The position numbers and the translations under genes are program-made. Below, piece after piece: positions 30,937 through 35,934 of a stretch of 64,000 bases of DNA (the stretch's first letter is position 1; every line of letters begins with the position of its first letter). This DNA is from Mayamaea pseudoterrestris (lineage: Eukaryota; Bacillariophyta; Bacillariophyceae; Sellaphorales; Sellaphoraceae), in contig BROI01000020.1 of the NCBI GenBank assembly GCA_027923505.1, forward strand, positions 124,001 through 188,000. The letters run 5' to 3'. The notes beneath the pieces were generated by a model. It was given only the letters and a program-made list of their open reading frames with translations. It was not told the DNA's origin and ran no database searches.

Positions 30937-32892
30937 TCAGTTGATCACTGGCTCCCAAACCCAAAGGTTTGCTAGGAACTATGCGTTGAGTTGCAGCAGA
31001 AGAATGAGAGTGAGGACGAGTCAAGTATTCGCTCAATCAAGCAAGCACAACCAGCAATGCTCTTGCAGCAGCACACGTATTACACTTACCTTTTCTCCCT
31101 TGGTAACTGGCTGTCCCGAATGCTGCGACAAGTCGTCAACGTTTCCGTCCGGTAGAACATTGTAAAAGAGTATTGCCGTGCCCTTTTTTGGTTCAATGGT
31201 GATGCCGTCATGGAAGTTAGCATTGGTGGCTCGCGGAAACCGCGTTTCGCCTCCCTCAAAGTTATCATTCAAGTACAGCAAGAGCGTGGCGAACCGCGTC
31301 GGCTGCATGCGATGCTTTTGCGACGGATATACAAAGTCGTGATGCGGAGCATACTCCTCGTTCTCCTTGTATCGCACCACTTGCAGTGACTCGGCAATGG
31401 AGTGGTGATTGGCATGCACGTCGTCATCCATGGGCGCCTGCAGGAGCGACTGGTCAATCTGCAGCACCTTGGCGGCGCGCTCGTAAATGCGATTCGTCAA
31501 GTCCGTCGTGGCGCGCTCGAGCCACGTATTCGTGGAGGACCTTGTCGATAGGTCGCGCTGATGCCGCACCAAGCTTCCAGAGTAGACAGTCGATGCCTGC
31601 ATGTCATGCGTAAGTGCCAGCTTGACTAGCTCGTCGCACTCTTCGGAAGTCAGAAAGTTCTTGATGGAAAAGACTCGCGGTTCAACCGATTCCGTTTTCA
31701 ACGTCAAGTCAGAATCTGGAATCGCTTGCACTTGTCCAAAGTGCGACGCCTGCCACATGAAATACTGGGGATATGGTCGCGGAAACTGTGCCAGCCATGG
31801 TCGTCGGGCATGAATTAGATAAGACGTGGCAAACTCCTTGGTGAGCAGCTGCATTTGATACAAGTAAAGGTCAGTTTCACTCCAGTCCTCGGGCGACTCG
31901 TTTGGATTCTCATAATATACCAAGCAATCATCCGCTGTCAGTGTCCATCTTGCCAATGCATGTGACGAGTCATGAACAGGCGTCAAACTAAAGGATTGTC
32001 CAGGCGTCGTGGCCGTTCCAAGCGATTCAAACGGAGCAATTTCGCCAACCAATTTGCGTTCCACACTGCCGTCCCAAAAGAGTAGCAAGGGTTGCGGCGA
32101 TATGTTAAAGAACTTGGCGGCAAAGCCTGTAAATGTCAAATGTGCAGGTTGTAGTTTGGCTTGTCGCTTGTGATTGACAAAGGAAAGGCTTGTCGAAGTA
32201 GCTCCATGATCCAAATACATGCTTTCCAACGTCGGCGACTGGTAGTATCGAGCATGACCCTTGAGTAGATTCACTCCATCATTCACTTGCTGCTTCAAAC
32301 AAGCAATCTCCGAGTCTCGCTCGTCTGAATGCTCCAAGGCTTCCGACGCCAAGTCTTGATTGTCTAGTAAAAGAACGTGACTGTAGTCGTCATCCTGCAT
32401 GAAATCAGCGGCATAATGAAGAATCATGGCTGGTAGCAAGCTCTTGGGGACTGTGAATTCAAATGACACCAATGTAGATTCACGCTTTGCTAAAAGTTCG
32501 CCATCAGCATCTGCTGGAGTATTGCAAAAGGTAATATTTGCCGTTCGCTGATAGGATTTTAAATGCGTATGCATCCGATCAAATAACACGGCAGTAGGAG
32601 CAAGTACATCTGACTCGGCTGCAGGACCATTGAGCTGCTGATAGCAGGCATAGACGATTGTCGCTAGGATGGCTACCAAGATGGCGCATACATGTTGCTT
32701 CCACGCCGCTCGCAGCGACTCGAGCAAAGTGAACTCGTCGTCGTCGTCATCGTCTTGATCGCATGTAACGCCCTTTCGATCAACTAAATACTCCCATTCA
32801 TCATCGCTGCCTTCACTTTGGTCGTCAAAGGCCGATGAGTCTTTGCTGCTACTCGTTGTGGCGGGAGAGCCGTTCGTCGTGGTGAGCGCCAT
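30937..32892 (-). CDS. Membrane-anchored prolyl 4-hydroxylase-like 2-oxoglutarate dioxygenase
   Basis: Fe(II)/2-oxoglutarate-dependent hydroxylase of the P4H alpha type, expected to hydroxylate Pro (or possibly Lys) in secretory proteins in the ER/Golgi lumen. Exon 1 is 32892-31090; a 111-nt intron (GTAAGT...CATAG) precedes a tiny last exon 30978-30937 coding 13 residues that end in LWVWEPVIN, the usual C-terminal strand of the family. Total 614 aa. Acidic cytosolic N terminus, single membrane helix about 67-84, a long middle region of unknown role, catalytic domain about 420-614. Metal ligands H517, D519 and H591 and the 2-oxoglutarate-binding K601 are all present, so it looks active. It is the first of several minus-strand secretory genes that include two Lys-rich proteins. 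Confidence 0.9.
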
Positions 32893-33616: not shown

Positions 33617-34483
33617 TTATTGAAGACTTAGCAGAGTGCGACCATCAGTTTTCGGTGCCTTGCTGCCTTTCGGTCCCTTGCTGCCTTTTGGTCCCTTGCT
33701 GCCCTTTGATTTCTTGCCTTTTGGCCCCTTTGTTCCCTTCGGTCCTTTCGTGCTCTTGGCTTTTGGCGCCTTTGTAGCCTTGGCAGCTGCGTCCCCTCCA
33801 GTTGCAACGGGCATGCGACGTCTCAAATCCCGAACTCCAAACTCGGGTGCCTTAGATCCTTTTGGTCCCTTGCTGCCCTTTGATTTCTTGGTGCCTTTCG
33901 ACTTCTTGCTTCCCTTTGGACCTTTCGTGCCCTTTGGTCCCTTCGTGCCCTTGGTCTTAGGAGCTTTCGTAGTTTTGGGAGCTTTCGTCTTAGCAGCTGC
34001 ATCGCCTCCGGCCTTACTAGCGATTGGCATGCGTCGTCTCAAGTCGCGACGAGCAAGGGTAGGTGCATCGTTTTTCGGCGATTTGGGGCTCTTTGGCGAT
34101 TTGGTACCCTTTGGTCCCTTGCTGCCTTTTACTTTACTGCCCTTTGGTCCCTTGCTGCCCTTTGATTTTGGTGCTTTGGTACCTTTTGGGCCCTTAGTGC
34201 CTTTAGGTGCCTTCGGTGCCTTCGTTCCCTTCGTCTTTCCTTTAGTAGCCTTGGCGACTTGCATGCGTCGCAAGTCGCGGCTCTGACGGAACTCGCTCAT
34301 GTCCACATGGTCGACCGCATCGTTTGAAACAGAAATACCTGCGTTGATGAGCTGCGTTGTTGCAAGTGATGTCGAGGTGCCAGTTTCAGCTGAGGTGAAG
34401 AACAGTTTGGCGTCGAACGAAAGGAACAGACTCAGTATCGCCGCAGCGACGGCGAGTTTGGATGGAAGGGGTCGCGAGTTCAT
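33617..34483 (-). CDS. Silaffin-like secreted Lys-rich protein A
   Basis: 288 aa. The frame opens further upstream (34708), but the ATG at 34483 gives a signal peptide (AVAAAILSLFLSF). After about residue 78 the protein consists of three blocks of K-x-x-K repeats (KGS, KGP, KGT, KAP) with Lys strictly every third residue over long stretches, also readable as collagen-like Gly-X-Lys. Blocks are separated by near-identical spacers RDLRRRMPxA..GGDAAAK; R-x-L sites are at R69, R146, R218 and R282. K-x-x-K clusters and R-x-L processing sites are established hallmarks of Thalassiosira silaffins and cingulins. A role in silica deposition is inference. Low complexity makes ordinary homology search weak. 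Confidence 0.85.
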   Translation of the reverse strand: MNSRPLPSKLAVAAAILSLFLSFDAKLFFTSAETGTSTSLATTQLINAGISVSNDAVDHVDMSEFRQSRDLRRMQVAKATKGKTKGTKAPKAPKGTKGPKGTKAPKSKGSKGPKGSKVKGSKGPKGTKSPKSPKSPKNDAPTLARRDLRRRMPIASKAGGDAAAKTKAPKTTKAPKTKGTKGPKGTKGPKGSKKSKGTKKSKGSKGPKGSKAPEFGVRDLRRRMPVATGGDAAAKATKAPKAKSTKGPKGTKGPKGKKSKGSKGPKGSKGPKGSKAPKTDGRTLLSLQ

Positions 34484-35430
34484 GGTTAACGTTGACGGTC
34501 TGTAATTTCTTTCTTCACGAACTCTGCAACACACAAGCAAAGTAGCAGCGTGAGGATGTATAGAAGAGGATTGCGTGTACCTGCGAGCCTTTGTATATGA
34601 ACAGATACGGCGGAACGGATCCAATTTGCGATGAAACGCTTGCATCGAATAGAAGTCGGCGATGAACACGAGCTCGCCTCGCGCGCTACGACATCGCGGA
34701 TTGGCCAACGGAGGGAATCTTCAAGTTGTGAGTCATTTCTGCGTCACAAGAACTAAGTAACCGACTGATTTCACAGCATGAACTCGCTAATATGCGCACA
34801 AACGCTGCAGCGTGTTCACAGCGGAGAATAGCGAATGACTCATGACTGGCGTGGCAGCTACAGTACGACGAGTACAGTTACGGTAACAGTGAATGTGGAG
34901 TACGAGTAAACCGAAATCCAGGAGGATCATTAGTAACAAAAGCTACCTACACTACACCACTTGTACTTGGCGAGGTACAACTCCAACATAGGAGTATTAT
35001 ATAAGTAGTGGCGACTTCTGCGGCATTACATAAAGTCGTGAGAGTAGGGAGTAGGTTCAAGATGAAGTTGTCGTCGTTGCGGGCACTCCATTGAAGGACT
35101 GCAAGATTATGGCAGAGCCACGCAACGTTCCTACGAGTAGCAAACAACGCATGAGTAAAGCCAACATTTTCCAAAGGGACCATGGCTACAGCTATGATCT
35201 ACATACGCATAACACAGAAGTAGTATTATAATTCGCTCATCGTCGACTCGCATTCGCATTCGACATCACAATTATTTTTCGCTGCTACATTGAACATAGC
35301 AATGGATCAAACGATTAAAATGATAGTATGCTAAACATGAACATTACAGGATGCGATATATGTAGTGAAATAAGTCGCCTGGAGCCTGTGCTCCACCAGC
35401 GAGCGGCTTGATGCTTGTCAAGCACCTCCC
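34484..35430. other. Intergenic between the two Lys-rich genes
   Basis: No gene accepted. 34860-34990 is dense in AGTAC/GTACGA words of unknown meaning. This is the candidate promoter of Lys-rich protein A and, if the two genes are co-regulated, worth comparing with 35935-36350. Confidence 0.5.
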
Positions 35431-35934
35431 TTAAGCCTTTCGAAGTGCACGCCTGCCAAGCGTGAACTTTGGCGCTTTCGTGCCCTTGACTTTGCTTCCT
35501 TTGCTTCCCTTCACTTTGCTGCCTTTCAAAAGGCGGTCGGTGTCGTCACGAAGAGCCCGCTCGAAGAAAACTGGAGCCTTGGAGTTTTTTGGCGCTTTTG
35601 TGCCCTTGATTTTACTTCCCTTGATCTTGCTGCCCTTGATTTTGCTGCCTTTGATCTTGCTGCCCTTAACCTTGCTGGCTTTGACGACCTTGACGCTGCT
35701 GCCTTTTGGAACCTTGATCGCTTTTGGAGCTTTCAAAGTTACGGTCTTGTCGCCTTTGTCGCCCTTGTCTCCCTTCACGCCCTTGCTGCCCTTCAGTTCG
35801 CGAGCCATGTCATTTTCGTTACTCGCCACATAGAAGGATGTATCATACTGCGAAACAGTCGTCTCGGTGTAGCTGTTGGTTCCATCGACAGCAAACGCCA
35901 GCAGGCTGATGATAATGGTCAAGTATCTGTTCAT
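35431..35934 (-). CDS. Silaffin-like secreted Lys-rich protein B
   Basis: 167 aa from the ATG at 35934; the frame extends a little upstream but begins there with TTG. Signal peptide MNRYLTIIISLLAFAVDG. Three Lys-rich stretches: about 48-63 (GVKGDKGDKGDK, collagen-like), 68-119 (with four tandem GSKIK units) and 137-156. R-x-L sites REL (45-47), RAL (126-128), RLL (134-136) and RAL (162-164) bracket the stretches, fitting processing into Lys-rich peptides. It shares composition and plan with protein A, 0.95 kb downstream on the same strand, so the pair is probably an old tandem duplication that has diverged. Confidence 0.82.
   Translation of the reverse strand: MNRYLTIIISLLAFAVDGTNSYTETTVSQYDTSFYVASNENDMARELKGSKGVKGDKGDKGDKTVTLKAPKAIKVPKGSSVKVVKASKVKGSKIKGSKIKGSKIKGSKIKGTKAPKNSKAPVFFERALRDDTDRLLKGSKVKGSKGSKVKGTKAPKFTLGRRALRKA

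What the first reader, a model, noticed from the sequence alone, without database searches (positions are those of the whole stretch)
33617..35934. Tandem pair of silaffin-like proteins (K-x-x-K blocks cut by R-x-L sites)
Both genes code secreted proteins with Lys at every third residue over long runs. In protein A each block is separated by a near-identical R-D-L spacer; in protein B R-x-L sites bracket each Lys-rich stretch. Established knowledge: Thalassiosira silaffins and cingulins have K-x-x-K (pentalysine) clusters that guide them to silica, and R-x-L sites where they are processed. The regular block-and-spacer plan of protein A, with three blocks released by R-x-L cleavage, suggests a polyprotein of similar basic peptides. 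Sequence identity to known silaffins is not expected because of low complexity.
Basis: partly seen in the sequence, partly recalled or inferred. Interest (0 to 1): 0.8.

Follow-up and report, generated by a model that had tools for sequence, protein, structure and literature searches.

The report
Silaffin-like secreted lysine-block proteins (diatom)
Two neighbouring genes of what is very probably a diatom encode secreted-type proteins made of lysine-every-third-residue blocks divided by R-x-L sites, members of a small family built like the known glass-forming silaffin precursors, though no silica role has yet been shown.

Summary
Gene A (33617-34483, minus strand, 288 aa) and gene B (35431-35934, minus strand, 167 aa) encode proteins with a hydrophobic N-terminus followed by blocks with Lys mostly at every third residue. 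R-x-L sites lie between blocks, more often than shuffling gives (4 against 0.48 and 4 against 0.35). The genome has silicon transporters and light-harvesting genes, so very probably a diatom's. Searches within it found five more genes of this plan at five other loci, a lower bound; one shuffled decoy found none. Most tested pairs of blocks and paralogues differ mainly at silent sites in rate, so the proteins look maintained. A and B meet the KXXK motif screen and hold pentalysine clusters, but fail the serine-rich composition screen (at most 13 Ser per 100 aa against 18). They are neighbours, not evident tandem copies. Best reading: silaffin-like precursors cut at R-x-L into basic peptides for the silica wall; cutting and silica binding are inferred. 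A collagen-like reading is weaker.

The parts
33617..34483 (-). Gene A: 288-aa secreted-type Lys-block protein, three blocks
   Evidence: open frame, ATG at 34483; composition and motif tests
34388..34483 (-). Gene A N-terminal signal-like segment (about residues 1-32)
   Evidence: best 12-residue hydropathy in the first 40 aa is 2.76; >=2.2 in 12% of 209 mechanical ORFs of the background set; no signal-peptide predictor available
34271..34279 (-). A: RDL site 1 (residues 69-71), before block 1
34073..34252 (-). A: Lys block 1 (residues 78-137, 22 Lys, 81% of steps = 3)
34040..34048 (-). A: RDL site 2 (residues 146-148)
33851..33991 (-). A: Lys block 2 (residues 165-211, 19 Lys)
33824..33832 (-). 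A: RDL site 3 (residues 218-220)
33650..33781 (-). A: Lys block 3 (residues 235-278, 17 Lys)
33632..33640 (-). A: RTL site 4 (residues 282-284), after block 3
35431..35934 (-). Gene B: 167-aa secreted-type Lys-block protein, two blocks
   Evidence: open frame; N-terminal hydropathy 2.83
35794..35802 (-). B: REL site (residues 45-47), before block 1
35578..35793 (-). B: Lys block 1 (residues 48-119, 25 Lys)
35551..35559 (-). B: RAL site (residues 126-128)
35527..35535 (-). B: RLL site (residues 134-136)
35467..35526 (-). B: Lys block 2 (residues 137-156, 8 Lys)
35443..35451 (-). B: RAL site near the C-terminus (residues 162-164)

Best explanation
A and B are two members of a diatom family of at least seven silaffin-like precursors. 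Shown here: a hydrophobic N-terminus, a leader with an R-x-L site, one to four regular blocks with Lys mostly at every third residue, R-x-L sites between blocks, dispersed paralogues in the same genome, and constraint on the protein sequence in most pairs tested. Inferred: the signal peptide takes them into the secretory path, a diatom endopeptidase cuts at R-x-L and releases the blocks as basic peptides, the regular Lys are methylated or carry polyamines, and the peptides are held in or help to form the silica wall. The plan is that of Cylindrotheca Sil1p, with longer, Gly/Pro/Thr-richer and, in A and B, serine-poorer blocks.
For: The host has SIT genes (10 matches of 11 candidates, best E 2e-197) and 53 light-harvesting matches. 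Five further genes at five other loci came up in own-genome searches; one shuffled decoy found 0. RxL total is 31 in 7 proteins against about 5.1 expected by shuffling, and 0 of 31 lie inside a Lys block; of 17 regular blocks, 15 have an RxL within 20 residues upstream and 14 downstream. Constraint: C22 against C2 dN/dS 0.20 (0.26 in the non-repetitive leader, 68 codons; 0.17 in the blocks); A block 2 against 3 pN/pS 0.17 against 0.71 for shuffled codons (60 shuffles). 14 of 32 shared Lys in C22/C2 use different codons. A and B hold 9 and 8 K[SG][SG]K motifs and 46 and 18 pentalysine starts. Sil1p has a signal peptide, then basic repeats whose mature forms lack the RRIL/RRNL ends (PMC4557024 passages); in 2017 RXL cleavage sites were reported only from biosilica-associated proteins (PMC5647440 passages).
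Against: No expression, localisation or peptide data. A and B have no 100-residue window with >=18 Ser and >=10 Lys. The leader between residue 30 and the first block is net acidic in only 3 of 7 (A -2, B -3, C1a -8; C1b 0, C10 +1, C22 +7, C2 +6), unlike the acidic domain of Sil1p. C1b has one RxL, no more than chance (0.67 expected, p 0.51), and RxL excess in C22 and C2 is modest (p 0.013 and 0.022). A block 1 against block 2 is less constrained (pN 0.35, pS 0.70). Pfam calls A collagen, just over its cut-off (28.5 against 27.2 bits). That diatoms cut at RXL is itself described as still to be proven (PMC5647440). That the host is a diatom is inferred, not named; other silicifying algae with silicon transporters (chrysophytes, from recall) are not formally excluded. 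No other diatom genome could be searched.
Confidence: 0.66

Rival explanations
1. Secreted Lys-rich matrix or mucilage proteins (adhesive, girdle or stalk material) that are not cut into peptides and do not direct silica; R-x-L is a leader site plus low-complexity linkers.
For: A cell-wall protein with KG-dipeptide repeats in the diatom Amphora coffeaeformis (AC3362) was found in a screen for adhesives and sits in an ammonium-fluoride-insoluble matrix (PMC4220933 passages). The genome also holds a secreted-type Lys-rich 1198-aa frame on C14 with almost no RxL (0.17 per 100 aa).
Against: The seven proteins, read from the first ATG of each frame, hold RxL at 0.62-3.5 per 100 aa (six of seven at 1.56 or more) against a mean of 0.70 in the 201 ORFs of the background set without Lys clusters, and none falls within a block; the RDLRRRMP spacer of A and the RRQL spacer of C10 repeat with the blocks.
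Confidence: 0.22
2. Collagen-like proteins: G-x-K triplets form a triple helix, as the Pfam match suggests.
For: Pfam Collagen matches A at 28.5 bits, cut-off 27.2; the two weak PDB matches are collagen-like peptides (E 0.028 and 0.087).
Against: Gly-x-y runs are short (longest 5 triplets in A, 5 in B, 2-8 in the family) while Lys-x-x runs reach 11 in A, 6 in B and 5-16 in the family: Lys, not Gly, keeps the period. B has no Pfam match at E<=0.1.
Confidence: 0.06
3. Low-complexity artefact: a repeat expansion on DNA level with no function of the protein.
For: The sequence is repetitive, and the opposite strand also holds a long open frame (216 aa, 33636-34286).
Against: A blocks 2 and 3 differ mostly at silent sites (pN 0.12, pS 0.69); paralogues C22/C2 have dN/dS 0.20; Lys codons are mixed (35 AAG, 26 AAA in A).
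Confidence: 0.03

Closest known systems
Sil1p, the silaffin-1 precursor of Cylindrotheca fusiformis
   Same: Signal peptide, RXL after it, then a strongly basic repetitive part whose units end in RRIL/RRNL that are lost on maturation (PMC4557024 passages; PMC3820600 passages).
   Different: Sil1p has seven units of 19-33 aa with Lys pairs; here 1-4 regular blocks of 20-72 aa with Lys mostly every third residue, rich in Gly, Pro and Thr; acidic leader in 3 of 7 only. No Sil1p sequence was aligned here.
Silaffin-like and KXXK-motif proteins of Thalassiosira pseudonana (tpSil1-3, SFLPs)
   Same: Signal peptide, KXXK motifs, pentalysine clusters, RXL-type cleavage sites (PMC5501833 passages).
   Different: A and B fail the >=18% Ser / >=10% Lys window test (threshold from PMC3478156).
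Cingulins of T. pseudonana
   Same: KXXK stretches in a repetitive secreted protein (PMC4557024).
   Different: No alternating Trp/Tyr-rich domains: A has 0 W and 0 Y, B 0 W and 3 Y after residue 20.
AC3362 of Amphora coffeaeformis
   Same: Secreted, Lys-rich, KG-dipeptide repeats, cell wall (PMC4220933 passages).
   Different: Tyr-rich; the term RXL does not occur in that paper's main text (0 occurrences).

Membership tests
Silaffin (biochemical definition) | found in, and released from, biosilica; precipitates silica | not testable with these tools
   needs frustule extraction and assay
Silaffin precursor architecture (Sil1p type) | signal peptide, then basic repeats each ended by R-x-L | tested here: met
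   A three blocks, B two blocks, bracketed by RxL; signal judged by hydropathy only
Silaffin precursor architecture (Sil1p type) | acidic domain between signal peptide and repeats | tested here: inconclusive
   net charge -2 (A) and -3 (B), acidic in 3 of 7 members
SFLP by amino-acid composition (Scheffel; threshold read in PMC3478156) | >=18% Ser and >=10% Lys per 100 aa plus ER signal | tested here: not met
   A and B 0 windows, max 13 Ser per 100; C1a 67, C22 3, C2 2 windows; C1b and C10 0
KXXK-motif silaffin-like protein (PMC5501833) | ER signal plus repeated K[SG][SG]K 1-6 residues apart | tested here: met
   A 9 motifs, 5 gaps of 1-6; B 8 motifs, 4 gaps; C1a, C1b, C10 also; C22 has 4 motifs but 0 such gaps, C2 has 0 motifs; signal judged by hydropathy only
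Silica-targeting pentalysine cluster (as described in PMC5501833) | five non-consecutive Lys within 12-14 residues | tested here: met
   46 starts in A, 18 in B; 13-44 in the other five
Cingulin | KXXK regions alternating with Trp/Tyr-rich regions | tested here: not met
   A 0 W 0 Y; B 0 W 3 Y
Collagen | long unbroken Gly-x-y | tested here: not met
   longest run 5 triplets in A and B, despite a Pfam match of A at 28.5 bits

The most novel reading that the evidence does not exclude
The family is a second silaffin chemistry: peptides released by R-x-L in which a Gly/Pro/Thr scaffold spaces Lys exactly every third residue, with little serine phosphate, so that Lys modification alone sets silica activity. 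A neighbouring membrane-anchored 2OG-Fe(II) oxygenase (31033-32892) may hydroxylate the Pro or Lys of A. Such precursors would be missed by serine-based screens and could stand in for silaffins in diatoms that seem to have none.
Probability: 0.2. Interest if true: 0.62.

Novelty: new variant of a known kind. Interest (0 to 1): 0.42.

Why it matters
Silaffins appear lineage-specific or very poorly conserved (PMC5501833 passage), so relatives are hard to find between diatoms. A family of at least seven genes with the Sil1p plan, four of them too serine-poor for the usual composition screen, gives a motif rule (R-x-L spacing plus Lys every third residue) that could be run on any diatom genome, and a set of repeated R-x-L sites on which the proposed diatom processing protease could be tested directly.

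Tried and rejected
Oomycete RxLR effectors: A holds R-D-L-R and B R-A-L-R, so this was considered. It was rejected because the genome has silicon transporters and light-harvesting genes; a search for elicitins found none but was uncontrolled. Collagen was considered because of a Pfam match and rejected because Lys, not Gly, keeps the period. Cingulin was rejected for lack of aromatic blocks. Recent tandem duplication of A and B was rejected. A dedicated link to the neighbouring 2OG oxygenase is not supported by the rest of the family: of 23 PF13640 places none lies within 20 kb of the other five loci (the nearest, on C10, is about 23 kb away).

From recall only, the genome size suggests the raphid diatom Mayamaea pseudoterrestris; its genome paper is not held, and no call shows this identity. 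Passages of two genome papers gave no genome size for it. The Poulsen 2013 pentalysine paper is not held; its definition is taken from PMC5501833. A PDB search of A gave only collagen-like peptides. The bacterial promoter scan is not suited to this host and is not used. One literature search gave nothing.

Limits of the controls: one shuffled decoy only, which destroys the local order wholly. Searches of this genome score only the best candidates, so seven genes is a lower bound. dN/dS on repeats is biased by protein-guided alignment; the codon-shuffle null (5 of the 13 comparisons) and the non-repetitive leader of C22/C2 address this in part. dS between A's blocks is saturated or nearly so, and A block 1 against 2 shows more amino-acid change (pN 0.35) than the other pairs. 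The tests of constraint were made on chosen pairs (C22/C2, and block pairs of C1a, A and C10); no such test was made for B or C1b. The background set has 209 mechanical ORFs and also contains 8 Lys-cluster ORFs (the seven family genes and C14); its mean RxL rate of 0.70 leaves these 8 out. Two irregular Lys stretches of C1a were dropped from the count of 17 blocks.

Full report
What is in the sequence. Two genes lie head to tail on the minus strand: A at 33617-34483 (288 aa) and B at 35431-35934 (167 aa), 947 bp apart, both single open frames. Each starts with a hydrophobic stretch (best 12-residue mean hydropathy in the first 40 residues: 2.76 and 2.83). Of 209 mechanical ORFs in a background set from this genome, 12% reach 2.2. 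No signal-peptide predictor was available. A then has three blocks (residues 78-137, 165-211, 235-278; 22, 19 and 17 Lys) and B two (48-119, 137-156; 25 and 8 Lys). 67-81% of the steps between successive Lys in a block are exactly three residues.

More than chance. From residue 31 on, A holds 45 KxxK against 13.2 in shuffles, and B 22 against 8.1. RxL is 4 against 0.48 in A (p 4e-4) and 4 against 0.35 in B (p 1e-4), with 20,000 shuffles each. In A the sites before each block read SRDLRR, RRDLRR and VRDLRR, and a GRTL follows the last block. Among open frames of 50 aa or more in the window, only A and B have three or more K-x-x-K-x-x-K.

The host. The window lies in a 30.6 Mb, 41-contig genome. 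It holds silicon transporters: 10 Silic_transp matches, best E 2e-197, three of them in one 1445-aa frame, as in published multi-SITs (passages of PMC6114903). The DXDID boundary motif described there appears as DKDID twice in the 957 aa of that frame printed. The genome also holds 53 chlorophyll-binding matches. The species was not identified, and silicifying chrysophytes (recalled, no call) are not formally excluded.

The family. Own-genome searches with A, B, the C10 protein and the C22 protein converge on five further genes: C1a (about C1:1268 kb), C1b (C1:281 kb), C10 (370 kb), C22 (130 kb) and C2 (444 kb). They also give one Lys-rich 1198-aa frame on C14 with almost no RxL (0.17 per 100 aa). 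A shuffled decoy of A's Lys part found nothing at E<=0.01. Over the seven proteins RxL totals 31 where shuffling gives about 5.1, and 0 of 31 fall inside a Lys block. Of 17 regular blocks, 15 have an RxL within 20 residues upstream and 14 downstream; the three without one downstream are the last block of C1a, the only block of C1b and the last block of C10. The excess is not uniform: C1b has 1 (expected 0.67), and C22 and C2 reach only p 0.013 and 0.022. RxL density, read from the first ATG of each frame, is 1.56-3.5 per 100 aa in six of the seven and 0.62 in C1b, against a mean of 0.70 in the 201 background ORFs without Lys clusters.

Constraint. C22 and C2 are full-length paralogues with dN/dS 0.20 (189 codons): 0.26 in the non-repetitive leader (68 codons) and 0.17 in the blocks (121 codons). 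Of 32 Lys shared, 14 have different codons. Block pairs within A, C1a and C10 also change more slowly at amino-acid sites than at silent ones; the weakest is A block 1 against 2 (pN 0.35, pS 0.70). In the five comparisons that were set against codon shuffles (60 each), pN/pS is 0.07-0.26 observed against means of 0.70-0.74. The blocks therefore look old and kept as protein, not fresh DNA expansions. B and C1b were not put to this test.

What it most likely does. Shown: signal-like N-terminus, Lys-every-third blocks, R-x-L at block borders, paralogues, constraint in most pairs tested, a host with silicon transporters. Inferred: import into the secretory path, cutting at R-x-L, modification of Lys, association with silica. 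The model is Sil1p of Cylindrotheca fusiformis: a signal peptide, an RXL after it, and basic repeats whose mature peptides lack the RRIL/RRNL ends (passages of PMC4557024; PMC3820600). RXL processing is a hypothesis in the field: one paper says it remains to be proven and that such sites were then known only in biosilica proteins (passages of PMC5647440).

Membership. A and B pass the KXXK screen (X = S or G, 1-6 residues apart) and the pentalysine definition as given in PMC5501833 (passages): 9 and 8 motifs, 46 and 18 cluster starts. They fail the composition screen (>=18% Ser and >=10% Lys per 100 aa; passage of PMC3478156), with at most 13 Ser per 100. Among the others C1a, C22 and C2 pass that screen in 67, 3 and 2 windows, and C1b and C10 in none. 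C22 and C2 do not pass the spaced KXXK screen. The acidic leader of Sil1p is matched in 3 of 7. So 'works like a silaffin precursor' is well founded in anatomy, and 'is a silaffin' is not shown.

Collagen. An automatic annotation could call A collagen (Pfam 28.5 bits, cut-off 27.2), but Gly-x-y runs stop at 5 triplets while Lys-x-x runs reach 11.

Tandem pair. A and B are neighbours of one family, but B's best other match is C10 (71% identity over query residues 51-121), A's is C1a, and their first 70 residues do not match at E<=1. Recent tandem duplication is not supported.

Literature. Searches of the held library listed, by title and start of abstract, no paper on R-x-L-divided Lys-every-third proteins in a raphid diatom. 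Only listings and passages were read, and subscription papers are mostly missing, so this does not show novelty. A draft genome paper on Nitzschia closterium f. minutissima (a synonym of Phaeodactylum tricornutum by its abstract) mentions silaffins three times, in general terms in the passages seen (PMC11151724).

Verdict. A real and clearly defined sequence feature, most likely a new variant of a known kind of diatom silica protein. Moderately interesting; decisive tests are at the bench.

Noticed in passing
window 31033-32892 (-): A 619-aa protein with an N-terminal hydrophobic (membrane-type) segment and a 2OG-Fe(II) oxygenase domain (PF13640, 58.8 bits) lies 724 bp downstream of gene A on the same strand; enzymes of this superfamily include Pro and Lys hydroxylases (recalled). 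23 PF13640 places in the genome, none within 20 kb of the other five family loci.
   Followed up: partly
G000 C1:2970661-2974680: Three silicon-transporter units in one 1445-aa open frame, a multi-SIT like those described in PMC6114903.
   Followed up: partly
L036:1-1412 (-), about 2.4 kb from the C1a ORF: A further secreted-type protein, cut by the end of the locus, with MSMSMSMSM and long SKAAKGSKGG repeats next to the C1a gene; an MSMSM motif is reported in two T. pseudonana silaffin-cluster proteins (PMC3478156).
   Followed up: no
L041:4245-7841 (-), G000 contig C14: 1198-aa open frame with a hydrophobic N-terminus, MSMSM, long PTPRPTP/SPVAPP repeats and a Lys-rich tail almost without RxL; another Lys-rich, PRPT-containing open frame lies at L041:3-707.
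   Followed up: partly
window 33636-34286 (+) and 35462-35833 (+): Long open frames opposite the Lys blocks (216 and 123 aa, Leu/Pro/Phe-rich); most likely a by-product of Lys/Gly-rich codons on the other strand.
   Followed up: no
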